Origin: Neopestalotiopsis rosae
Taxonomy: Eukaryota > Ascomycota > Sordariomycetes > Amphisphaeriales > Sporocadaceae
Assembly: GCA_023078685.1 (NCBI GenBank)
Contig: JALGAS010000004.1
Span: forward strand, 2,914,001 to 2,978,000
DNA length: 64,000 nucleotides
Direction of reading: 5' to 3'
Program-made: the position numbers and the translations under genes
Notes under the pieces: generated by a model
Database searches by the model: none
The model's input: only the letters and a program-made list of their open reading frames with translations
Told to the model about the DNA's origin: nothing
Part shown: piece after piece, positions 2,827 through 19,000 of the stretch
Layout of the letters: each line of letters starts with the position of its first letter
Position numbering within the stretch: the stretch's first letter is position 1

Positions 2827-4550
2827 ATGCCGCTCATCAACGGCCAAAAGATGGCCTGGTACGTTTTTGTCTGTCCTCTGCCCCGAATCTCCACCGATGA
2901 CCGCAAACTTTCTCAACAAGGCGCCGTCGCAGGCAGGCAGACAGAAAGATTTTGTCGCATACTGCCTCAAGCGATCAGCCATTACTTCTTGACACGATGC
3001 TGACATTCCTCCTAGTGAGCCATGCATTCGTGGCCATCGTTCGACCACATGCAACCACGCCAACGAGCGTGTCATGGTCCCGGTGCGCAAGCCCGGCAGG
3101 CCACTGAATGAATGCCCCCATACACGCGGTAGTAATTGCGGATGTAGAGACGTGACTGTCGCCATCCCTAGGAAAAGGAAATGCGAGTGTGTTGGCGACA
3201 AATCCGCCGCTGCCAAGACCTCACTCACCCAGACATCAGCAGAAGCTGCTCGCCCTGGAAATGCGTCAACATCAGTCAAGGAGCAACAGGGTAGTGAGCC
3301 GTCATCATGCTGTAAACCAAAAGCACCATCCACAGAGGCATCATCAGCCAGCATACCTCCCGCCATGGCGGCCGTACCGGCAATGACACCTCTGTCTCAA
3401 CCCCAAGCTCAAGTTACACCCATGAGTGGCAACGCGGCATCACAATGGACCACAAATTGGAACTGGAATTTTGGGTCCATGGCTTCGTCACACGCACCAC
3501 AGCCTTTTCCGGGATTTACCGCCTCTGTACCGCAACAGCCCCAACCCATTCAAGTGCAAGCATCTAGAGTACCACAGGCTGTAGAGGTAGTCGTGCCAAC
3601 TGCGAAGAAGAGCGACTCGGACGATGAAGTGGAGGGCAGGTCATCACAGGAGGGATCGACATCATCATCAGCTGCTGATGAGCCCACTGTGCGGTCAAGT
3701 TGCTGCTCTACGCGATCCAGTAGTACTGCACAATTCGCTCCCACGCCCGACACCGCGTCACCCGAGTCATCCGGCGCTTCATCCTATGCAGGCCATTCTC
3801 GCTCCAATTCCAGGTCACGGACAACAAGAAAATTGCGAAAGGACAGGTGAGCCAAACATTTCGCTCAAGTACACAAGTATAAGCATGGCTGACATCCAAA
3901 CAAGACAAAGTGTGTCATCCATAGCGACTGCGGTGCCCCAGGCACTGCCAGAAACAACTCCTCGTCCTGCATTTCCTGTCATGATACAAAGTCCAGTCTC
4001 GCAAATGTCCATGCAGCCCATCACAGCACATCCACCAAATTGTACAAACTGCGGTCATAATCAACCAGCGATACTGATATATTTACCATTTGGTCTTCCA
4101 GCTCAACCTGTAGCATATACCGGTACTGGTGGCGGTCCTGTATATGTTGTTCAGCCTGCGCAACCAGCCCCCGTAAATATGCCGCCACCACAGGAATTCC
4201 CCAGAGCCCCGAATCCGTCCATGCAGGCCATCACTGTTCCTATGGGAGGGTGTGCGAGTGACACAACTGGACTAGGAACCCTCCACGAGTGCAACTGTGG
4301 TCCCGGTTGTCAGTGCCTCGGCTGCATTGCCCACCCATTCAACGATGCAACGCGGGAATACATTCGATCCGCCCAAAATGCCTTTGATGATTTCGGCACG
4401 CCATATCAAAGCCTGCAGGACCTTGACTCGGCCAATATGCCAACGGCGCAATCGATTGCGAATCTGACCCTCAGCCCGGAGCAGACATTAGCTTCAGAGG
4501 ACTTTTTCTTCGTCGACTATCCATCAGCACAGAGGGTATATCCCGGATGA
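2827..4550 (+). CDS. Copper-fist transcription factor, Mac1/GRISEA/Cuf1-like
   Basis: Predicted nuclear copper-responsive transcription factor, about 500 aa in three exons: 2827-2858, 3016-3846 and 3905-4550 (the last acceptor could instead be at 3910). The N-terminus is a complete copper-fist domain. Cys11, Cys14, Cys23 and His25 form the zinc knuckle, at the same positions as in yeast ACE1/AMT1, and are followed by a KPGRP minor-groove motif and a Cys-rich copper-cluster segment (CPHTRGSNCGCRDV, then CEC). The Cys11 codon is split by intron 1. Near residue 415 lies a second cysteine block, CNCGPGCQCLGC followed by AHPFN. In Mac1/GRISEA-type activators such a C-terminal motif senses copper and controls activation of high-affinity copper uptake genes. 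That block argues for the copper-uptake activator rather than a metallothionein-type ACE1 activator. The middle is Ser/Gln/Pro-rich. The fist and the C-terminal motif are seen directly; the target genes are inferred. Confidence 0.9.
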
Positions 4551-5693: not shown

Positions 5694-6806
5694 CTAAACC
5701 AAGCTGGCCTTTTCTTTGTCGAGGGCATGGCCACATACAAGAAGACTTTTCACGATGTCGGACAATCGAGATAAGACGTATGCGCGATCATTATATGTGG
5801 CAGGCCGGTACCTTTCTCTTATTTTGAGCCATTCGTAAATCAATTGGTACATCATTGGTACCCAGCCGGAGTTCATGGACACTTGAAGTGCAATGGCAAG
5901 GGGTTTGAGTGTAGTCACATATCGCGAGTCCTGCTGGTACGCCTGATTCCAGAGAAACAGCACAATTCTGCTTCCGTTGACAAATTTTCTCATTCTCATG
6001 GGGTTGTCGAGGATATCTAGACAGATCTCGTGTCAATTAAAGTGCGTGTGAAAGAAAACAATTTGGAGTGCCTGATAGAAATGATCATACCCATTGGAAA
6101 AGTCTTATCGACAATGACATCGAGGTCATCAAAACGCAAGGGCTCGTGGAGCAGTTCCATGTGATGCTTGAAGGTATCGTCCATTATGTATTGAATCAGC
6201 CCACATGCTCGCAAAAGTCGTAGAGAGCCCGGCTGGTCCTTCTGTACATGCTCAATGGCGATGGAGTAAACGTGGTCATCCTGGATCCCTTGTCTACTGA
6301 TCAAGTGCTCGGCCATGGCAAGGAAGCAATCGCGTACGACTTCATCAACGAACACTCTTGTATCAGTATGGTGGAATTAAAGTTGGAGTATTGGGTGAAT
6401 CGTTAGTTGACTTACAGTCATCTGGGCTGACGGGATAACTTTGCTCGTCAAATCGACGGAGCTCACCTCTGAACAAGTTGATGATACACTCGTCACCGGT
6501 ACAGAAAAAGTCATGCACCGAAAGATCCCCCAAACAACAAAATTCGTGAGCCTTGGGAATGATGGTACTTGATGCAAATGCAGCCCCTGGCGATGGTTCA
6601 GGGGATAAGGGGTCGGGCAAAAACAGAGCCTGAAGCTCAGGTAAATTTTGCGGTGCCATCGAGGAAGCCTCGCCAGGTGATAAAGGGTCGGGCAAAGACA
6701 GAGCCTGAAGCTCAGGTAAAGGTTGCGGTGCCATCTTGCGCTTCTTCTCATCTCTCGCAGCCTGCTCGTCGTCATCAAGCATACGTTTTCTGGAATAGTC
6801 TGCCAT
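5694..6806 (-). CDS. Orphan three-exon family, member A
   Basis: Unrecognised protein of about 325 aa. Exons on the minus strand are 6806-6416, 6354-6091 and 6016-5694, giving an uninterrupted frame of 326 codons with both introns in phase 1. An in-frame ATG at 6881 would add 25 residues. The N-terminal region is charged (a KKRK run) and carries a tandem repeat of about 24 residues. The middle exon has LRFDDLDVIVDK. The C-terminal exon has LWNQAY, a WVPMMYQLIYEW block and a final LDKEKASLV. It belongs with the genes at 7256-8248, 12989-13964 and 14736-16017, which share intron positions, intron phases and the C-terminal signatures. No signal peptide or membrane segment is evident. Function is unknown. 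Confidence 0.7.
6614..6735 (-). repeat. In-frame tandem repeat inside orphan gene A
   Basis: Two adjacent copies of about 72 nt encode nearly identical segments of about 24 residues. The copies read MAPQPLPELQALSLPDPLSP and MAPQNLPELQALFLPDPLSP, differing at two positions over this core. The length is a multiple of three, so the frame is kept. The DNA copies are almost identical, which suggests a recent duplication or repeat-number variation. Confidence 0.85.
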
Positions 6807-7255
6807 TGATCTACTGTTGTCTCCAGAGCCTGCGTATTGTATGTTGTAACCAGAGGGCGCACCACAGAGGCCCATTAGCATATGACAAGAATGCTGAAGA
6901 AATGAAAAGTATCAATATGTCCTAAAAGACGATGACATGAGTAGCAAGTCAGGAATCCAACACTCACAAAGTGTTGACAAGACAGCTGGGAGCTGTCCAA
7001 GCTCTTTCTGCGCGCCACGCCTTTTTATTTCACTACTGACAAACCTTGGTGGAAGATGGAAACTGCACCTCTGACTCCCTTCCCTTTCTCCTTCCACACA
7101 GAACTCGATAACGGGCGCATTACATCATGATATGGAGACGGAAACCGTATCCTTTCGCTCGTCACAGATCGGCTTCCAGAATGCTAACATCAGTAGTCGT
7201 GCCCTTCGCCCCTCGTAATCAAAGCCAGGCCACTCTGAATCTGGCTCACATTGGC
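6807..7255. other. Spacer upstream of orphan gene A
   Basis: Promoter and 5' leader region of member A, lying just downstream of member B on the same strand. There is no gene in it apart from the possible 25-residue N-terminal extension of member A up to 6881. Confidence 0.35.
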
Positions 7256-8248
7256 TCACTCTTCCTCCAGCTCCAAAGCACGCTTAACGCCTGCAGTCTT
7301 CTTAACATCCCACTTCAAAGCGCGCTGGATCACTGCAAACTTCTCCCGATCCAGCTCATTCTCAGTCGACAGAAGAGCTTTCTTCTGCACATTCAGGATG
7401 CTCAGACACTCGCTCAATGTGCCAGTGTGTACGGCGTTCTTGCCATTGGCCCGAAATTCACCGTGTGGTAGAGTAGCCCAGTAGATGATGGGCCAAATAA
7501 CGGGCCGCATCTCTGAGTTCTCCTTCAGAAGTTCTGAGGCACTCTTGAGAAAGTTCAATGTGGATAGACACTTCTTGGGAATGCCGTCGTAGGAAGCGTT
7601 CCAGAGAGAGAGCGCGAACTTGCGGATGTTCGTGAATTGTGCCGCGTTGCCGTCTGGACCGTACACCTCGCCTGTGAGTTTTTACCCAAGTATTAGCCAA
7701 CAAGACAAGTGGATAGAGCTAGATAGGGTTTGCCATACATTGATAGTTGATCATGCTGTCGAGATCCGCGGCCGTCAAGGGAGTGAACCACAATCGCGGT
7801 GGCTTCAGAAAGGCGTCGCTCATGAGGAACTCGATTATGCGCAGAACTCGGAGAGCCGGATGTCCATAACGGTTATCTGTGCAGTCCCAATCGGGCACCC
7901 AGCGGTCGATCATGTCAAAGATAAAGGTGTAGAAGAAGTTCATCAAGACTAAAATGCAACTCTTGCTTTAGTATCCAGAGACTCTTTGGAAAGCCATGCA
8001 GTCAGTGCGGGAGAGGGCTCGCTGGACTTACAGATTGCCTGGCTGTGTTGAGGTTCATCCTTGATCTCTTCGAATACCGGAGGCATGATACCTTCTGGCC
8101 ACATTCCAAAGAAGAAATTATAGGCACTATGTCCGAACGTAGCCCTTGTATGTTTCTTGACCTCGTCAGAGAATGTCTTTGCATATCTGACCGCCCAAAG
8201 ATCTCTGTTGGCCCGCTGATAGGCCGTCTCGGTGAGGGGACGATCCAT
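7256..8248 (-). CDS. Orphan three-exon family, member B
   Basis: Unrecognised protein of 280 aa. Minus-strand exons are 8248-8032, 7948-7739 and 7671-7256, and the joined frame is 281 codons with two phase-1 introns. The start is the ATG of MDRPLTET; open frame continues upstream without another ATG. Exon 1 contains the aromatic stretch AYNFFFGMWPEG. Exon 2 has RVLRIIEFLMSDAF and then LTAADLDSMI, matching member A's DDLDVIVDK position. Exon 3 has LWNASYDG, VIWPIIYWATLP and ELDREKFAVI. Intron phases and these signatures match members A, C and D. It lies head-to-tail upstream of A with 449 bp between them. Function is unknown. The predicted product is soluble and mostly helical (my inference). 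Confidence 0.72.
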
Positions 8249-10316
8249 GATGAATAGTTGTGTGATGGCTGTGTTGTCCTGGTTCCGTTTGCTTGTCTCA
8301 AGGGATTTTGCCGTCACGTCCAAGTGAATGAAATCACTGTTGTGAAGCCAGACAGACCTCGAGAGATAAGATGGGGTGCTTGAAGATCATCGAAATCTTC
8401 CGCACCTTTGATCGAAAAAAAAAATATGGGAGGGTAAATAACCATTTGGTTGTATCGTGGGTTGCTTTGAGAAGAAAAAAGATTGTTTACCCACGCCCTG
8501 GTTTGCCGATTTTTCAAAGATTGTTCCCGGGGCGCCTGAAGCTAGAAACTGCAACTTTGAATTTTTGGTTCTTGTGCAGGAGCACATCGCGACTGGAAAC
8601 CTGAAACGAGCTCTCGATTGGCCTTGTCCGCAGCAGGCCCTTGGACAATGAAGAAGTCACGGCTCAATATGATCGTCGTCGTTCGTGATTTCTCCGTCTG
8701 AACTGTGGTATAGCCGACGACCATATACGGCACTTTGGATTCTCCACTCGCACAAGGCGAGTACTATGCGAGTGCCTACTATCCGCCTACTATCAGACGT
8801 CATTGCCCCAAACATATTGAGGAAAAAACAAATCGTACGGCCGCTCTCTCTGAATATGGCACAATAGAGGATGGCGTGTCTTCTACTACTGATCCATGGG
8901 CGGTTGTAAGTCTGCCCCCCGAGGCACTGTTCTTAGTATCAAACTTCAGTAGCCAGGTAAGTAAGCCCAGGCATTGAGGAACTCGGTTTTGATGGAGATA
9001 GAGGATAGGTAACTTTCATGGTTGAGAGGGTTCAGGTACAGATGATGATACCAGTACTGCTGGTGGCCAATTACCCAAGTGACATTAACAGAGAGCAAAG
9101 ACACCGTATTGTATTCTTGGGTCATGTATGACAATTTAGGAGCAATGCCTTGGGCTGGCTGCATGCAAATAGGGTCGGCAAGACTAGCAGACTGGCTCTG
9201 GGTGCCGACTTCACGGTTTGGCATATTGGCCCACTAACAATGACAGCATATCGAATAATGCATAGCTGGAATCATCATCCTGCAAGACGGGATTTGAATT
9301 CACGGTGTACCGTGCAAAGATTCAGTTCGCCGTAGTCGACTAGTCACAACGGAGGGAAGGCATCGTTGGCTTCACTTAGATGTCGAGTGGTTCGACACCA
9401 GACAAAGCATTTGCTTGGGGAACGGTGCATGGCTAGACACTAGTCTAGCACGAGTGCACTTGGCTCAAGCTGATATCTATCTCGTTCTCAAGTGTGCTTT
9501 TATGCCACCGCCAACCAGCAGTCGAGCTGAGGCACTGCCTGGTACAATATTACGCACGCACACAAAGCACATCAACATTTATTGGATCAGATGGTCTCAT
9601 ATTGTCCTGTTTAGGTGGTGAGGTGCCGCCCAGGACATGTCAGCATGCTCCCGCCGAAGCGGAAAACCAATAAGCTGTGAGTTTTAACGGCTCGTCACAT
9701 CCAATTTTAGTTGATACAGAAGAAAGGGAAAAAAGAGAAGAGGAAAATGCGGGCGCCGAAAACGCACTTAAGAACCAAAAAAATTGGTCGTGTCCCACCC
9801 GTCTGCGGTTATCGCAAGACACTTTATCACCACGTGACCGGCTGACCCGTGCCTGCATTTCTCCAAGGTCATGGCAGCCGAAGCGTTGCGCCGACCCCGC
9901 AGCAGTCGAACGAGGGCCCTTCGGTCAGCATCGGTATGGTTTCCGGTGGGCAGCCAGGCCAGCCAGGTGCTCTCCAAGTGCTAAAGACTACCCTATCAAG
10001 TAATATTTAGTGGTTCCTGGCAGCCTCGCAGCGCCTGGCAAGGCAACTGAGGAAGCGCCAAAAAAAGATCGGGGTTCGACCCGGTAAAAAAGCTGCTAAG
10101 GTAATCAGCACCAGTTCCTTCGTAGCGGCGGAGCTTGTCGCACTGCAGACTGTTGAGTGGTGACGGCGACGAGGCGACTACCAATTCGTCTCCATACCAC
10201 ACGACTCATATCCCGACCTCGCTGATCCCATTAGCAATTGATTCGTTTGATTTTATTTTCTTCGCGGCGCGCCCCCCGAAATGCAGGAAGCACGGATAAG
10301 ATAAGAAGACAAGACT
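8249..10316. other. Intergenic, about 2 kb between orphan B and the SHMT gene
   Basis: Divergent intergenic region serving as promoter space for orphan gene B (minus) and the serine hydroxymethyltransferase gene (plus). No protein-coding exon chain could be built. A tRNA-like anticodon arm on the minus strand near 9.3 kb was examined and rejected. Confidence 0.4.
10281..10304 (+). promoter_or_regulatory. Possible upstream ORF in SHMT 5' leader
   Basis: An ATG followed by six sense codons and TAA lies just upstream of a likely 5' UTR intron. If transcription starts before 10281, this seven-codon uORF would sit in the SHMT leader and could dampen translation. The transcription start is not visible from sequence. 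Confidence 0.25.
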
Positions 10317-10481
10317 GTAAGTCATTCACTTAATCATATTATACATATCGTCGCCCCAGTTGCAGTCAGCCCAGTTTCCAATTGGGACTCTCTTCCTCTC
10401 GTCGCCGTTGTTGCTGTTGACTTTCGCTCGTGTGTCTTGTGTGCCGTGGTGCTGACTCCAGTCTCTTCCCCATCTCTGCAG
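10317..10481 (+). other. Probable 5' UTR intron of SHMT gene
   Basis: A strong donor (GTAAGT at 10317) pairs with a pyrimidine-rich acceptor (CTCTGCAG ending at 10481), only six bases before the SHMT start codon. Splicing would place the leader directly against the ATG. RNA reads would settle it. Confidence 0.45.
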
Positions 10482-10487
10482 ATAGCC

Positions 10488-12307
10488 ATGTCTCTTGCCG
10501 CTTTCCGAGGCACTTCGCGTGCTCTCCGCACCCTCCCGAGATGGGCGGCCACGACGACGACGACAACGACGACCGCCGCTGCTCGCCTTGGCGCCCGCGT
10601 TCAGGTCCAGAGCTGCGTCGCGGCTCGCCGGTCCCAGTCCTCGTCGGCCGCCTCTCTCGATGGGCAGCAAAGTGTACGAGATGAATCTACTTCTGCTAAC
10701 ACTGGAGTCGCACCCAATGGTTCTGATGCTGATGCTGCTCAAAAGTTGCTGTCGGCGCACCTGCGCGAGGCCGACCCGGCCGTCTTTGATATTATTGAGA
10801 AGGAGAAGAAGCGACAAAAGCACTCCATCAACCTCATTCCTTCCGAAAACTTCACTTCGCAAGCCGTGCTCGATGCTCTAGGAAGTGTTATGCAGAGTGG
10901 GACAATCCTTTGGGTAATCTGAGAAGAGAAGAGAGCCATGTGTAGCTGATGCTCGTGAACAGACAAGTACTCCGAGGGATACCCGGGTGCAAGATATTAT
11001 GCTGGCAATGAGTTCATTGACCAGTCCGAGAGGCTATGCCAACAGCGCGCCCTCGAGACCTTTGGCTTGAGCGACAAGGAATGGGGCGTCAACGTGCAGT
11101 GTAAGCGGACTATTCACCAATGTGGCTTCACGAGAAGGCGCAAGACTAATATCGATTCCCAGCCCTTTCTGGCGCTCCCGCCAACCTCTACGTCTACTCT
11201 GCTCTCATGAACACACATGACAGACTCATGGGCCTGGACTTGCCCCACGGCGGTCACCTGTCTCACGGATACCAGACCCCGACCAAGAAGATCTCGGCGG
11301 TTTCCAAGTACTTTGAGACGGTTCCCTACAGACTCGACGAGGAGACTGGTCTCATCGACTATGTCAAGCTTGACGAGCTTGCCACTGTTTACAGACCCAA
11401 GATCATTGTCGCAGGAGCCAGTGCCTACGGCCGGTTCATTGACTACAAAGCCATGAAGGCAACGGCCACCAAGGTTGGTGCTTACTTGGTCGCTGACATG
11501 GCACACATTTCCGGCATGGTCGCTGCCAAGGTTCTTCCCAGCCCATTCACTTACGCCGATATTGTAACGACTACTACTCACAAGAGTTTGCGTGGCCCCC
11601 GTGGTGCCATGATCTTCTACCGAAAGGGAGTCCGATCCATCAACAAGAAGAAGGAGGAGGTCATGTACGATCTTGAGGGACCTATCAATGCCTCCGTCTT
11701 CCCAGGCCACCAAGGTGGTCCTCACAACCACACCATCACCGCCCTGTCGGTGGCACTCAAGCAGGCACAAACGCCCGAGTTCCGCGCATACCAGGAGCAG
11801 GTTTTGGCCAACGCCCAAGCATTCTCCAAGAGATTGAGCGAGCCCAAGAACAGCGGTGGTCTTGGTTACAAGGTTGTCAGTGGTGGCACCGACAACCACC
11901 TTGTCCTGGTTGACCTTAAGCCTCAGCACGTTGATGGTGCTAGAGTTGAGCGTGTCCTGGAACTGGTTGGTGTGGCCAGCAACAAGAACACTGTCCCGGG
12001 TGACAAGTCGGCCATGATCCCTGGAGGTCTGCGCATGGGTACTCCCGCCATGACCACTCGTGGTTTCAATGAGGATGACTTTGTCCGTGTTGCCGACATT
12101 GTCGACCGCGCAGTGACTATTGCGGCCAGAGTAGACAAGTCTGCTCGCAAGTCAGCTGAGGAGAAGGGTGAGAAGTACAAGTTGAAGTTCTTCTTTGACC
12201 ACCTTGGCAGTGGCGAGGATGACTCTGAGATTGTTCAACTGCGCTCCGAGGTTGCCGACTGGGTCGGCACATACCCCCTGCCTTGGACTGAGGAGGGTAA
12301 GGCGTAA
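10488..12307 (+). CDS. Serine hydroxymethyltransferase, mitochondrial
   Basis: PLP-dependent enzyme that interconverts serine plus tetrahydrofolate and glycine plus 5,10-methylene-tetrahydrofolate, feeding one-carbon metabolism. Exons 10488-10896, 10963-11100 and 11163-12307 give 563 aa. Residues 1-50 are rich in Arg, Ala, Ser and Thr, including eight consecutive Thr, with almost no acidic residues, as in a mitochondrial presequence; this suggests the mitochondrial rather than the cytosolic paralogue. Diagnostic blocks are [41 protein letters not shown] and the PLP-lysine motif [13 protein letters not shown]. The family match extends over the full length, ending at WTEEGKA. It is a conserved housekeeping gene set between two pairs of orphan-family genes. 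Confidence 0.96.
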
Positions 12308-12988
12308 AGTCGTGCTGTCTTCGTACAATACTACAATGAAAGGATTCCAGCTGGATTAGGTCACAAGTCTCATTGAAGACGATGGTGCTTTCTGCGATAT
12401 TGGATTTGCGCGGGAGACGCCCAGGGAGGAAAGAGTTACATTGGATGCGACCAGTACTGCTTTCTGTTCAGTCATTCTGCGTACATCACATCTCATCCTT
12501 GCATCGGGAGTCTGGAGTGTTTATAGGTTTTGCACGCAGGTCATACAAAGTCAGTTCAACACTTGTACCAATGGTTCACCGCGATGATCCGTTCATGGCA
12601 ATCTTGTCAGCGTAAGCGCAATTAAATAGTAAAAATGACATTTTGTTGTTGAGTTCTTACAGGAATGAGCTCATGTGAACACGATTCGAGATGATTTTGA
12701 AAAACAAGCCGATAGCAAACTTGATATTGTGGCACACTCAACCAACATTTACAGTATCAAAGGAATACAAGCACCTGAGCCAACCATTGCAATGAGACAA
12801 AGACAATCAACCAACTTGTTTTGCTGCCTCGTCCGCATCCGAGCGCCGGGTTTGAACATTTGAAGAGTTCTTCTGATCCTCACTGGAAAGATCTTTTGTT
12901 CTGCTGAATTCTATTTCCATCTCAAACAACATCAACCATTCAATCAAAACACTTCCACTAGTGATAGTAATTTTGAGTCACTCATAGA
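12308..12988. promoter_or_regulatory. Duplicated upstream region of orphan gene C (copy 1)
   Basis: No gene. Positions about 12718-12925 closely resemble about 14471-14755 upstream of orphan gene D. Shared stretches include CCAACATTTACA and CACTGGAAAGATCTTTTGTT-like text. The two downstream genes are therefore a tandem duplication that included the promoter. The SHMT 3' UTR must occupy the start of this interval. Confidence 0.6.
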
Positions 12989-13964
12989 ATGACCGACCAA
13001 TTGTCCGGCACATTCGAAGACGACGAACTGTACAGCGAGTCTGAAAGTGAGGAATACGACAGCGAACCTGAAAATGACATATCAGCACCGCGAGACAGCC
13101 TGGTTCTGTCTAAAGCGCCTTCTTTACCGGTCTCTGAGGAGTACCAGCAGGCAATAGACGCCAGTAGCATAGAAGTGGACATCGATTATTTTTATGTCTC
13201 CCGAGAATCCGAATGGACTCTTGAGCATATTCTTGGCAGCGACAAGCACGCCAGAATACGAAGATGAAACACTCCGCAAATGTAAATCCACATGAACATC
13301 ATTGTTTCTTACTCAAGTGTCCGTTATTTGCCCCTGTTGAAAGCCAGTCCATACTGATATTCAAGATGCTTGTGCAGTTGCCGAGATAACAATTGTCGCC
13401 ATGGTCAAGCTTCTTGTCTCTGAGAAAGCGGCCCGCATAAACCGCCCGGCTGACAGAGAAACCGAACCTAGAGACCTGCCTCCTATCGATAGCTTTGAGA
13501 TATTGGTCAAAGTCGCCTCTCACCGTACGTTTTATATGGCCCCCTACCTCTGACTGATGAGAACAAGACTGAAAAGAGTCATTGCAATAGACAGATACTG
13601 TCCTGATCTCACCCTGGAGCTCTTTGAGCATATACACATATTCATAATCGGACTCTGGAATCAAGCCTACAACCCGGACCGAGAACGCGTGCTCGCCGGC
13701 CTAGAGGCCCTCGACGTGGCCCTGGGAGGTATGTTCCATGAATTCTGCAACCCCAAAGCGAAAGAGCTGCTGCCACAGATCTGGAACGTTATCAACTGGT
13801 GGCTCGAGCCCCCGGGCAGCATATACATGTTCCAACCCGCGCCCATGATCCCACACAGGGCGCGCGTGGGTCACTTAATGTTCCTCGAGGCGCGCTTGCG
13901 CGCGAGCGGGCATGGATTGGACGCGGAGAAGGCGGCCATGGTCAAAAAATGGCTGGACAGATAG
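12989..13964 (+). pseudogene. Orphan three-exon family, member C, with a one-base frameshift in exon 1
   Basis: Family member related to A, B and D. Exons by comparison with D are 12989-13281, 13348-13524 and 13591-13964. The exons sum to one base more than a multiple of three. The frame from the ATG continues to a stop at 13267, while the frame matching member D begins at the T5 run 13189-13193, where one extra T accounts for the shift. Without it the product would be 280 aa, the same length as member B. The N-terminus is very acidic (Glu/Asp/Ser-rich). Exon 2 carries VAMVKLLVSEKAARI. Exon 3 carries LWNQAYNP, IWNVINWWLEPP and GLDAEKAAMV. It may be a young pseudogene, a strain polymorphism or a homopolymer sequencing error. 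As it stands, only a 92-residue N-terminal fragment would be made. Confidence 0.65.
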
Positions 13965-14735
13965 AAGGAACCACGCTGGAAGACAGACGACGGCAGAAGG
14001 CACGCAATCATTTCGAAAATAAATACGGGCCTTACTGGGGATTTGCTTGAATTAGTAGAACACATAGCAATTTAGCAGGAAACTAACCTGTGAGAACCTA
14101 GATGAAGAGTGATTATTAAACCCGGCTATTCCTTCTCTCTCTGTGTCATTCTTTCGGGACTTATTGACCTTGGCATGGCACTGATCCCCATACAGCAATA
14201 GGGCCACAGATTGCATGTTCCATGGTAAGAGAACTCGTAATCATAAGTGGCAGCGGATGTTGTTAAACCCGAAATGAGGTTTAGGGTATGCTGGGATAAT
14301 TCGACGCATCACGATTACCATTCAGTCTTGTGTAATGTCGTTCAAAGATGTAAGTCGCTTTGGATAATATGCCTAGGTGTAGTTGCTTTAATTTCTGTGC
14401 TCTTGAGTCGATCAAACACAATTTATCGATCCACAAGAGCATGGGGCATCACTTCCGGCACGTAATGGCAAACTTCATATTGCGGCACTCCCAACCAACA
14501 TTTACAATATCAAAGGAATTCAGTGATTTAAACCAACTATTGCGATAACAGACAAAGAAAATTAACCAAGCTTTTGTGCTGCCTCTCCCGCATCCGATTT
14601 CTGGTACCTGTTTGGTACATGAGATCCAAAGTCATTAGCAACACGGGCGCCTGAGAGACTCCCTCCACAGGGACTGGCAGTGCTCGAATGTATAAAGAGT
14701 TCTTTTGATCCTTACTGGAAAGATCTTTTGTTCCG
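13965..14735. promoter_or_regulatory. Spacer between orphan C and D, with duplicated upstream region (copy 2)
   Basis: About 14471-14755 is the second copy of the segment upstream of member C, with an extra segment of roughly 75 bp near 14606-14690. No gene is seen. Confidence 0.55.
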
Positions 14736-16017
14736 TTGAAACCTAAAGAGAAATATCCATCATTACATAAGATAGCCCACCAATCGAACAGCCTACCCGA
14801 AGAAGGTGCTATTGTTCCTAGAGATGAAGAATCAATCCTGACGCGGCGAGATGATTCGGTATTGCCTGCAAAGCCATCTAAACTAGTCTTACGTATCGAC
14901 AGAAAAGTCAGACAATTCTGTGATCATTACATATACGACCATCCGTTTCTTCGTCCTCAAGATCACCGTCATTGCGAAGACGAGAAATACGAAAACAAAA
15001 AACTCGAAGAGTTCATGTCTCCTGAGGATCAAGACGGAGTTTTGTACGCATTCTTCGCCGCGCTACGCAACTCGGACTGTGCATCCGAGGATCGCCACAC
15101 GCGCCAGTGTAGGTCAACATCAACATCATTGTTTTTACTCGTGTATTCATCTCCTTGTGTGGAGACCCGACTCGTACTAAAATTCAGAAATTCTCTATAG
15201 TCCTTGAGAAAACATTTACCTCCCTGGTCCGGCAAATTTTGTTTCATCTGGAAAACGAGGAATTTCCCTGTGAATATTATGATGATGATGATTGCTTTTG
15301 GGAACATGGTGAGGATTGGTTTAAGAGAGCATACGGGGTGGTATTGAAGCTCACGGAAGATCGCATGGCTCAGCCAGATCGCTTAGGTTGCAAGCCCGTG
15401 CCTACCGAAGCCTTTGATAAAATTGTCGAGGACGTCACCGACTGTATGTTCCAACATGCTTCTTACCCTCCTTTACCTGAAACAACGCTGAAATAATCAT
15501 TGGAGGGTACTTTCCCGGGATCGATTATAAGGAGCACTTCGAGCAATTGAACGCGCTCTTACTCAAACTCTGGAATAGGGCCTATAATGTTCCGGAGAAG
15601 GAATTAGAAGAAAATGTGTCAAAGCGAGTCATCACCAGCCTCAGGCCTCTCGAAGTAGCCCTGGAAGTTTTCTTCAGCTGCAGCGATTTCGGGCTCCCTC
15701 CTGAGGTCTGGAACGTTATCAACTGGTGGCTCTTACCCCCGGACACCAAAAACTTGTTCAAACCTGCGGACCCAATGCCATGGAAAAATTGCTTGAATAA
15801 CTTAATAAATCTCGAGAAGAATCTATGCAATAGTAAGCACGTCTTGGATATGGAAAAGGCCAACATTCTCCAACCATGGCTACTCGAAGAGGAGAAGCGG
15901 GAGCAAATTAGGCCACAGGCGGAGCGAGATGAAAAGGCGTACACTTGTCTAGTACAGCTCCATCAGGTTCCGCAGCAGCTTCAACAGCTGATTGACCTGT
16001 TGGAGCAAAATAAGTGA
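14736..16017 (+). CDS. Orphan three-exon family, member D (start unresolved)
   Basis: Unrecognised family protein. Exons are about 14736-15108, 15201-15443 and 15506-16017, and the joined frame is continuous with both introns in phase 1. The open frame runs back to 14736 (376 codons), but the first in-frame ATG is at 15015 (EEFMSPED, 282 aa). So the N-terminus either has an unseen upstream exon or has lost its start codon. Exon 1 has SPEDQDGVLYAFFAAL, matching the shifted frame of C. Exon 2 is rich in Asp, Glu and aromatic residues. Exon 3 has LWNRAYNV, VWNVINWWLLPP and VLDMEKANIL, then a Glu/Gln-rich tail (HQVPQQLQQLIDLLEQNK) absent from the other members that looks amphipathic. It lies in direct tandem with C. 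Function is unknown. Confidence 0.62.
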
Positions 16018-19000
16018 GCGTCAAATCATCTGATACCACTTCGCCAGGTTCAGCAGCAGCTTCCTCAGCTTTGGGAGCTACTGCCGCAGCCTACAATTTG
16101 GGGGACAGAATCAGTAGAACACACATCCGCACGGGCAGAAGATCAAGTCTGAGGACTTCAAAGAAAGTGTGAATACTACGTCCGGCAACCCTTATCTTGG
16201 CATTCATTGGCTTCAAACCATACATGAAGAATGTCTATAGATCATTTTCTTAGGCCATGTATCACGATGAAGCATTATACTTTCAACTATGCGTTACATA
16301 GGACTTCACCGTGGTGCTTTGTATGTCGCATGAAGCACGTGAGATGTAAGACAGGTCAAAATATCGTGTGTTCAATCGTCAAATAGACCATGATGATGAA
16401 CGGAGTGGATATGTCTGACTGACGCCAAACTTACCCATCTCATCTTGTACAGAGACATGATTGCTGAATTACCCATGATCTTGATTAGAGCATGGAACAA
16501 TACTTCCGGAATCGTGGAGACACGCACATCAGCTCCAGATATATGTGGGTGCTTGACTATGCATAACACGACCGGAATACACCGAGATGCTTTTTAGGGA
16601 CTGAGATCAATCATGAACGGCTCAAACTTCTTCACCGCTGTAACGGTGCTTAGAGGAACAGGGAAAGGGGTGTCGTATGCTTGTCCTGTCGTTGCATATA
16701 GTGACGACTTCGTAGAAGACGATCTTTGCACAATAGCTAGGCAGAAGTGGAAATGGAATAAAAGGTTTGGTGACAAGACATCGAATCATGAGGATCGGTC
16801 GCAGTAGCTGCATACATGGACATTCTCTTCACTCAATCACCCAGTAGTAGTCTTGGGTCAAATGCTAACGAATATTTGAGTACGTGTAGAGGCGAACGCG
16901 CGGCTGGGAGTTCCCATCTACGTACTGATGATTGAACATTCACGAGCATTCAAGAAATCTCTCTTATCGAATGGACAAAATAAGTGAGAAGAATAACAGC
17001 CTATGCATTTAGATGTAATCAGATATCGTGCCAGGTCAATCCTCGTCATATCAGCAGAACATCGTATCAGCAACAAAACCACAAGCTAGACGAGAAGGAT
17101 CTCCAAGGGAGCAGACCATGGGACGATGGAAAGTGGAACATCGTTCTAGATATGGCAGTATGGTAGGTATAGAGTGCATCATTGACTACACCGTCGGCGG
17201 TCAGATATTGGTGATGAACCAGCGCATGTCGTTGAGCAGGACAATTCAATGTTGATAACCAGGCGAATGAGCCACCACGGGATCGACGGGCCGATCATTT
17301 GGATAAATGAGTGTGATCCGCATATTGATATCCAAGTAAGGCTCAGGGCTGTGTAGAAAATCGAGGAGTTGTCACTCTCATACGTACGTAATTCTTCTCC
17401 CCCAATTAATATCTTCCTTCGCATGGTCCATACTTACATTCTCTAGATCTCGATCCACCGGTTTGCGCCGGCCAACAAGGATGAAAGACTGACCCGCCTT
17501 TTTCGGAACCGTGGCCATGCTATCAAACACTACAATTTCGTCACACATGCGAACCGGGTGCCGGTCTACGGGTTGGCGGCTCATCGTGGAACATGTCACA
17601 AACGTCCGCCGTGGGACCGGGATGGGTGGAGACACGGTTAGTTGTCTCACGGATCGGACTATGCCATCGTTCTCCTATCTACCAGGCCAGCTGCTCATTC
17701 TCTTGAAGGAGATAAGGGAGTAATGGCGCTGTTGGCTGGTTGGCTGGTTGGCCATCTGGGCGACACATGAATAGATTGGATGGAACAAGCTCCACATGGC
17801 TCCAAGACTGTAGGGTTGCACGAAGGAAGAAAAAGTGGACGTTTTCGTAAGCAAGGGGTAATGCGGAGGAGAATATTTGTGGGTGAACAACCGTTGACGC
17901 CATGCGTCGGCTTCGGCTCAGTGCTGTGAGATGATGGCATTTGGCATTGACGGTGGAGCTGAGCATCAGGGCCGGTGAGTTCTGCAGAGAGCGTAAGCGT
18001 GAGCGCTATAGACAGTACACAGCCATCGATATCGTCCTCGCAGGGTCGTCGTAACATGCCCATATGCAACGCTCGGTAACAAACCGTAACTTGGAGCAGT
18101 AAGAGCAGCAGAGTGCTGGAGGCTATTGTTAACAGCAAAGTGACGGTAAGGTAAGTGTTTACCGTGAGCAGTAACCCGAATGTTGTGTCCAGATCAAGCA
18201 GATTTATGCCTCATGCCGCCAAATTCCCGTTGCGTACGCGTCTATGAACTGTAGCCAACAGGCAATCTACATTGATTGCGCCCAACTTCATCCGAGTCCG
18301 GCCAGTGGTCAACTCTGACTGTATGGATTGAGTGGTACGGTTTTTTCATCTAGGATATTTGTTGTCGTACATGGTATTGGAGGTCTGTGCATGAGTATAA
18401 TGCGAGCTTGAGACTGTAGGATCAAGCTTGCATGCGACGCCCGATCGCAGCCTGTCCGGGTGAGAGCATCCCGGCATTCTGCGTGTCGGAAGTAGAGCAA
18501 ACATGGAGTGTCTGCTGCCTGGCATGGTGGTGCCAAAACCGGTTTGAATCCGCCCTGCGCAGTAAGAGAAGATCAACAAGAGTTCCTTCGGAGGCCGCTT
18601 GGAATCTGGAGGTTCAAAGACACTCCATTTTCTCGGACCGTTATGGGCCTTTTAATTGTGGGCATTGAGCGCGCACGGGGTTATGATTGACTGTTGATCC
18701 CGGCGACGGTTCTGTTATTCTAGCGGCACTTGTTCTCTGAGCATGGCATTCTGGCATTCTGATGGTTTTCTCGATCGAGATTCCGTAGAGTATCTATGAT
18801 GTTACCTGCTGTAGCAGTGGAGTCCAGCTTCGGGGCACTTTGAGCTAAGCCAGAGAAGGGCCGATGAGAGCTGCGACTGCAAGGCCTGACTTTCTTACGT
18901 TCTGCAGTGCTTTCAGACATCTCCTGTGTTTTGACATGTAGTTGGCAAAAATGCTGCCAAGTATTCCTGTATGCAGCTAGGATTGAGCGAAAAGAAGCAC

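What the first reader, a model, noticed from the sequence alone, without database searches (positions are those of the whole stretch)
5694..16017. Undescribed four-member gene family in two divergent tandem pairs flanking SHMT
Seen: four genes (A 5694-6806 minus, B 7256-8248 minus, C 12989-13964 plus, D 14736-16017 plus) each resolve to three exons with both introns in phase 1 at matching places. All have LWNxxY early in the last exon, a WxxIxxW block about 45-50 residues later, and LDxEK near the end. Protein identity outside these blocks is low, so the family diverges fast. Two genes point left and two point right, with the housekeeping SHMT gene between them. I recognise no described domain. 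Inference: a lineage-specific expanding family that duplicates locally. The function is open, and self/non-self or effector-like roles are only speculation.
Basis: partly seen in the sequence, partly recalled or inferred. Interest (0 to 1): 0.75.

Follow-up and report, generated by a model that had tools for sequence, protein, structure and literature searches.

The report
Fast-changing gene family beside SHMT gene
A plant-associated fungus carries a small unnamed gene family packed around one housekeeping gene, found so far only in close relatives; two copies look worn out, and one copy took its start from an unrelated gene for a DNA-repair enzyme.

Summary
The four genes are real and homologous, and the family is larger than reported. 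A profile from C, D and three outside relatives picks out A, B and a fifth gene, E, at E 5e-12 to 6e-9 among 772 open frames; the next best is 3.3. E lies 2 kb left of the window. Six whole-genome protein searches found members only in this 20-kb block. Named outside relatives are hypothetical proteins of Pestalotiopsis and Neopestalotiopsis. Corrections: C's 5' frame does not join its conserved part; D has ATA where relatives have ATG and stops 44 codons early; WxxIxxW is strict only in C and D. New: the start of gene A is an 83-bp copy (79 of 83 identical) of part of the RNase H2 subunit B gene on another contig, in frame, bringing the start codon and a basic KKRK stretch. Against Neopestalotiopsis sp. 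37M, A and B are 97-98% identical, but its only C/D-like protein found is 59% identical to D. Most likely intracellular helical scaffold-type proteins under birth-and-death evolution; biochemical role not shown; a secreted effector is unlikely.

The parts
6416..6806 (-). gene A exon 1
   Evidence: agrees with P0006 apart from a 25-residue repeat unit
6731..6813 (-). 83-bp copy of part of the RNase H2 subunit B gene (C14:1492034-1492116), in frame; holds the start codon and first codons of gene A
6091..6354 (-). gene A exon 2
   Evidence: 37M annotation begins it 15 nt later
5694..6016 (-). gene A exon 3 (LWNQAY, LDKEK)
8032..8248 (-). gene B exon 1
7739..7948 (-). gene B exon 2
7256..7671 (-). 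gene B exon 3 (LWNASY, LDREK)
10488..12307 (+). SHMT gene between the two pairs (not a family member)
   Evidence: PF00464 E 7.3e-149 on 11150-12304; ATG 10488
12712..12908 (+). upstream region of C with two blocks shared with D (80% and 91% identical)
12989..13267 (+). C: 5' open frame from ATG, not in the frame of the conserved part
13194..13281 (+). C: conserved part of exon 1, from an internal Met
13366..13524 (+). C exon 2
13591..13964 (+). C exon 3 (LWNQAY, WNVINWW, LDAEK)
14465..14740 (+). upstream region of D with two blocks shared with C
14772..15108 (+). D exon 1: open frame similar to P0002 and P0004, ATA where they have ATG; internal Met at 15015
15201..15443 (+). D exon 2
   Evidence: acceptor chosen by likeness to P0004, an alternative is 15164
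15506..16017 (+). D exon 3 up to TGA (LWNRAY, WNVINWW, LDMEK)
16018..16152 (+). 44 codons behind the TGA of D that match the end of P0004, then a stop

Best explanation
SHOWN: a gene family of at least five members (E, A, B, C, D), without a described domain in its core, sits in one 20-kb block of a Neopestalotiopsis-like genome. A-D share two phase-1 intron sites; E shares the first. D, and probably C, are damaged in this assembly. Gene A has a chimeric start copied from the RNase H2 subunit B gene. INFERRED: the family evolves by local birth, decay and remodelling of gene ends; E, A and B are the working members here and the C/D side turns over. The proteins are intracellular, mainly helical scaffold or adaptor-type proteins that bind partners through a HEAT-like helical core. 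A probably gained a nuclear address from the captured basic stretch, and E adds a zinc-binding module. Confidence by step: family and its confinement 0.9, capture 0.9, decay of D 0.75, decay of C 0.6, scaffold/nuclear reading 0.3. The number below is for the whole.
For: Whole-genome searches place members only at this locus. In six of six profile mixes the five genes took the first five places among 772 ORFs, the next ORF at 0.59-3.8. Shared intron phases. E and C/D types both exist in P. fici six locus tags apart, which fits the order here. Capture: 79 of 83 bases, same frame, sharp ends, present in 37M too. Damage in D: no ATG at 14772 and an early TGA, with relatives intact there. Helical model for P0004, pLDDT 69.8; no signal peptide by hydropathy in 8 of 9 proteins; Cys-rich tail in E.
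Against: No expression data. The helical core has no confident fold match and the model of E's kin is weak. That KKRK works as a nuclear signal, and that E's tail binds zinc, is not tested; Pfam matches of the tail stay under cut-off. C and D could start at a shared internal Met, and C's frame change could be an assembly error. B is weak in single-sequence searches (0.02; 0.10) and rests on the profile.
Confidence: 0.5

Rival explanations
1. A fading orphan family: the genes matter little, local duplicates appear and decay almost neutrally, and the capture is an accident that brought a start codon and nothing more.
For: D and probably C are damaged. C against D has dN/dS of about 0.5-0.6 with first-position identity (56%) no higher than third-position (57%) in exon 3. 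No relatives found outside two genera.
Against: A and B keep open frames and 97-98% identity with 37M; E keeps its core in P. fici at 44% with its neighbours apparently in place. Two upstream blocks of C and D are better conserved than their coding exons.
Confidence: 0.25
2. A recognition or conflict locus: E, A and B are stable parts, while C/D-type genes vary strongly between strains and take part in self/non-self recognition or another genetic conflict.
For: A and B are 97-98% identical between this strain and 37M, yet the only C/D-type protein found in 37M is 59% identical to D and 39% to C; in the tree C/D rows have end branches of 0.3-1.4, the others 0.03 or less.
Against: No HET or NLR domain by Pfam. 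P0002 may simply be another copy; 37M DNA was not read. Damage in C and D fits loss as well. No test of strain variation within a species.
Confidence: 0.12
3. Secreted effectors acting on the plant host.
For: Genus-limited, divergent paralogues in a genus with plant pathogens (PMC13215550, passages).
Against: A, B, E (first 126 residues), P0002, P0004, P0005, P0006, P0007 have no hydrophobic start (best 8-residue mean at most 0.86 in the first 35 residues); only P0003 reaches 2.4, from a start that aligns to the exon 1-2 junction of D.
Confidence: 0.04

Closest known systems
Hypothetical proteins E8E14_008165, E8E14_008201, E8E14_008376 (Neopestalotiopsis sp. 37M), G7054_g7234 (N. clavispora), PFICI_03092 and PFICI_03098 (Pestalotiopsis fici)
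   Same: Same family by sequence: the first is A (97%), the second B (98%), PFICI_03092 is E type, the other three C/D type.
   Different: No function or family name is attached to them in the source names shown.
RNase H2 subunit B (PF09468/PF17745)
   Same: Donor of the first codons of gene A: 83 bp, 79 identical, same frame.
   Different: A has neither RNase H2B domain; only a piece near the donor's C-terminal end was copied.
NOT1 superfamily homology domain and other HEAT/MIF4G-like helical repeats
Fungal allorecognition (het) gene clusters
   Same: Local duplicates and possibly variable members (recalled; papers seen only as a listing).
   Different: No HET or NLR domain; no shown polymorphism within a species.

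Membership tests
The orphan family itself (A-E) | Sequence homology of the last-exon core | tested here: met
   Top five of 772 ORFs in six of six profiles; whole-genome hits.
The orphan family itself (A-E) | Two phase-1 introns at matching places | tested here: inconclusive
   Met for A, B, C, D. In E intron 1 is in phase 1, but the 51-nt GT-AG stretch at the second site is in frame, without stop, and read as coding in P. fici P0005, where 10 of 17 residues agree: E may lack intron 2.
The orphan family itself (A-E) | LWNxxY, WxxIxxW and LDxEK | tested here: inconclusive
   LWNxxY and LDxEK in A-D, WxxIxxW only in C and D; none of the three in the last-exon core of E, which has LWAQSY and FSVIHSW.
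RNase H2 subunit B | PF09468/PF17745 domains | tested here: not met
   Gene A has neither; the donor-type protein P0008 has both.
NOT1 homology domain / HEAT-MIF4G repeats | Fold | tested here: inconclusive
NOT1 homology domain / HEAT-MIF4G repeats | Pfam sequence signature | tested here: not met
   No such family listed for A, B, C, D at E up to 1 or P0001-P0004 at up to 10.
Fungal allorecognition (het) genes | HET or NLR domain | tested here: not met
   Pfam scans of A-E and P0001-P0007 list none.
Fungal allorecognition (het) genes | Strong variation between strains of one species | tested here: inconclusive
   C/D-type 39-59% against A/B 97-98% versus 37M, but copies may not correspond and 37M may be another species.
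Secreted effectors | N-terminal signal peptide | tested here: not met
   Crude hydropathy: 8 of 9 proteins lack a hydrophobic start; P0003 has one from a start inside the family core. No dedicated predictor was available.

The most novel reading that the evidence does not exclude
The SHMT locus of pestalotioid fungi is a genetic-conflict or recognition hotspot built on an unnamed helical protein family. E, A and B are stable parts, and the C/D side is replaced or broken so often that strains with 97-98% identical A and B carry C/D proteins only about 59% alike. The family also re-addresses its members by capturing pieces of unrelated nuclear genes.
Probability: 0.1. Interest if true: 0.75.

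Novelty: new member of a known kind. Interest (0 to 1): 0.45.

Why it matters
It is an undescribed, locus-bound protein family with a visible life cycle: conserved members, local duplicates, damaged copies, and one member whose start was copied recently enough from an identifiable donor gene that the donor site can be read base by base. That makes one step in the evolution of new genes, the gain of a new N-terminus with a possible nuclear address, directly testable. If the C/D side proves to vary between strains of one species, the locus becomes a candidate recognition or conflict locus in a genus with crop pathogens.

Tried and rejected
Secreted effector: hydropathy does not support it. RIP (repeat-induced mutation) as the cause of decay: the TA/AT and CA+TG indices of C and D are ordinary for the window. 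Further members elsewhere in the genome: none found with D, B or A exon 3, P0004, P0003 or P0005; these single-sequence searches could miss distant copies, and each found only some of the five. Further captured pieces in the rest of A or in B, C, D, E: none at DNA level. A promoter motif common to all five genes: only C and D clearly share upstream blocks; CAACATTTAC also resembles a spot before E but occurs elsewhere in the window. Fold: no Foldseek match at E 0.001 or better. PDB sequence profile: best rows are designed pentatricopeptide proteins over 21 positions, E 0.003, taken as chance. E's tail: Pfam gives only sub-cut-off zinc-finger matches (best 0.0012); Foldseek lists LIM and RING chains at E 0.9-2. 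A second intron in E: first taken as spliced, now doubted because P. fici reads the stretch as coding. PFICI_03093 to 03097 were not read, so the P. fici gene order is inferred from tag numbers. Paper searches: four locus-tag strings gave two unrelated papers; searches on orphan families, P. fici, Neopestalotiopsis, RNase H2 and chimeric genes gave nothing on this locus in the listings; of one paper, PMC13215550, passages were seen; no other paper was opened.
Full report
SETTING. Its nearest named relative in the protein searches is Neopestalotiopsis sp. 37M: B is 274 of 280 and A 285 of 295 aligned residues identical to 37M proteins. Published Neopestalotiopsis genomes of about 50.9-53.8 Mb and 48.55-52.72% GC fit (PMC13215550, passages seen); the window has 50.3% GC. 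The fungus is most likely a Neopestalotiopsis; this is inference.

THE FOUR GENES. A (minus 5694-6806) and B (minus 7256-8248) each splice into three exons with two phase-1 introns and an open protein. The annotated 37M protein P0007 aligns to B without a gap over all 280 residues. P0006 agrees with A except for an acceptor 15 nt later in intron 1 and a 25-residue repeat unit, two here and one there (the repeat also shows). C and D, read from an internal Met, have two phase-1 introns and an intact core. Their starts are another matter. The frame that begins at ATG 12989 in C ends at 13267 and is not the frame of the conserved part from 13194. D reads ATA at 14772, where P0002 and P0004 have their ATG, and has a TGA at 16015-16017 followed by 44 codons that match the end of P0004. 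The match of P0003 to C likewise runs a little past C's own TAG. So D, and probably C, are worn copies in this assembly. A shorter product from the internal Met (13194 or 15015) is not excluded, nor is an assembly error in C.

A REAL FAMILY, WITH A FIFTH MEMBER. D exon 3 searched against the whole genome gave five places, all here: D, C (3.7e-18), a new gene E (3.4e-4), A (4.8e-4) and B (0.02). B exon 3 found B, then D and C weakly (0.10, 0.11). A exon 3 found A, D (5.4e-4) and C (0.13). P0004 found C and D, P0003 found C, D and B (0.0018), and P0005 found E. A profile made only from C, D and parts of P0002-P0004 ranked B, A and E next among 772 ORFs of the window and 9.8 kb to its left, at 4.9e-12, 1.9e-11 and 5.6e-9, with the next ORF at 3.3. 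In all six profile mixes tried the five genes took the first five places, the next ORF lying at 0.59-3.8. E (L012 6099-7782, C12:2910299-2911982, plus strand, 2 kb left of the window) has an intron at the first site in phase 1. At the second site a 51-nt stretch has GT-AG ends and phase 1, but it is in frame without a stop; the annotated P. fici protein P0005 reads it as coding, and 10 of its 17 residues agree. So E may have lost, or never had, intron 2. E continues past the core with an acidic linker and a cysteine-rich tail whose Pfam matches stay below cut-off. The block from E to D spans 19.7 kb. The motifs LWNxxY and LDxEK hold for A-D, not for the core of E; WxxIxxW is strict only in C and D.

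ORDER AND RELATIVES. The order here is amino-acid permease, E, a DnaJ-domain gene, a copper-fist gene, A and B (minus), SHMT, C, D (Pfam of the non-family genes). Three protein searches found seven relatives, P0001-P0007: 4 hits among 3092 candidates, 2 among 7994 (candidates capped; one of the two is again P0001) and 3 among 5386. The last hit, P0008 (E 0.69), is an RNase H2 subunit B (PF09468, PF17745) and led to the capture below. P0002, P0006 and P0007 share one contig length of 269,103. The search reaches only relatives that share short exact words, so more distant ones may exist.

THE CAPTURED START OF GENE A. A DNA search with the 5' part of A found one other place in the genome: 83 bp at C14:1492034-1492116, 95% identical, E 4e-30 (2.7e-29); 79 of 83 bases agree. 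The place lies inside an intronless frame that matches P0008 at 99% over 1-436. The base-by-base view shows sharp ends, the same reading frame, and a match that begins 7 nt before the ATG of A and covers its first codons including KKRK. P0006 of 37M carries the same start with two changed residues, so the event is older than the split of these two strains. Searches with the rest of A and with B, C, D and E found no other such piece. That KKRK acts as a nuclear signal in A is inference.

RATES. E is 428 of 445 identical to P0001 and 154 of 349 to P0005; D is 117 of 197 identical to P0002, and C 67 of 173. In a 12-row tree the A, B and E rows have end branches of 0.03 or less, while the five C/D-type rows have 0.3-1.4; 4 of 9 inner branches are open. 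P0002 may be a different copy rather than the counterpart of D, so fast divergence and copy turnover cannot be told apart here. Between C and D, exon 3 is 60% identical at DNA level, with dS near 1.0 and dN near 0.5 (Nei-Gojobori, 117 codons, near saturation). Two upstream blocks are 80% and 91% identical; these are the best blocks, and the whole upstream alignment is 69% over 283 ungapped columns.

VERDICT. The finding is real, larger than reported and partly misread in gene structure. Locally duplicating orphan families and chimeric gene starts are known kinds (general knowledge); this family and this capture did not turn up in the paper searches made (listings).

Noticed in passing
window 6598-6722: Tandem repeat in exon 1 of A: a 25-residue unit present twice here and once in the 37M counterpart.
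   Followed up: partly
window 2993-4550: Copper-fist transcription-factor gene (PF00649, E 2.8e-11) between E and A.
   Followed up: no
L012 8539-9438 and L012 1990-3624: DnaJ-domain gene right of E and amino-acid permease left of E.
   Followed up: no
own genome C1:6207271-6207846: A second SHMT-like gene, 70% identical to the query fragment.
   Followed up: no
window 12712-12908 and 14465-14740: Upstream blocks of C and D are better conserved than their coding exons, which suggests shared control or gene conversion.
   Followed up: partly
L012 6530-6580: 51-nt in-frame GT-AG stretch in E at the site of the family's second intron; coding in the P. fici annotation. A possible intron turned into coding sequence, or the reverse.
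   Followed up: partly
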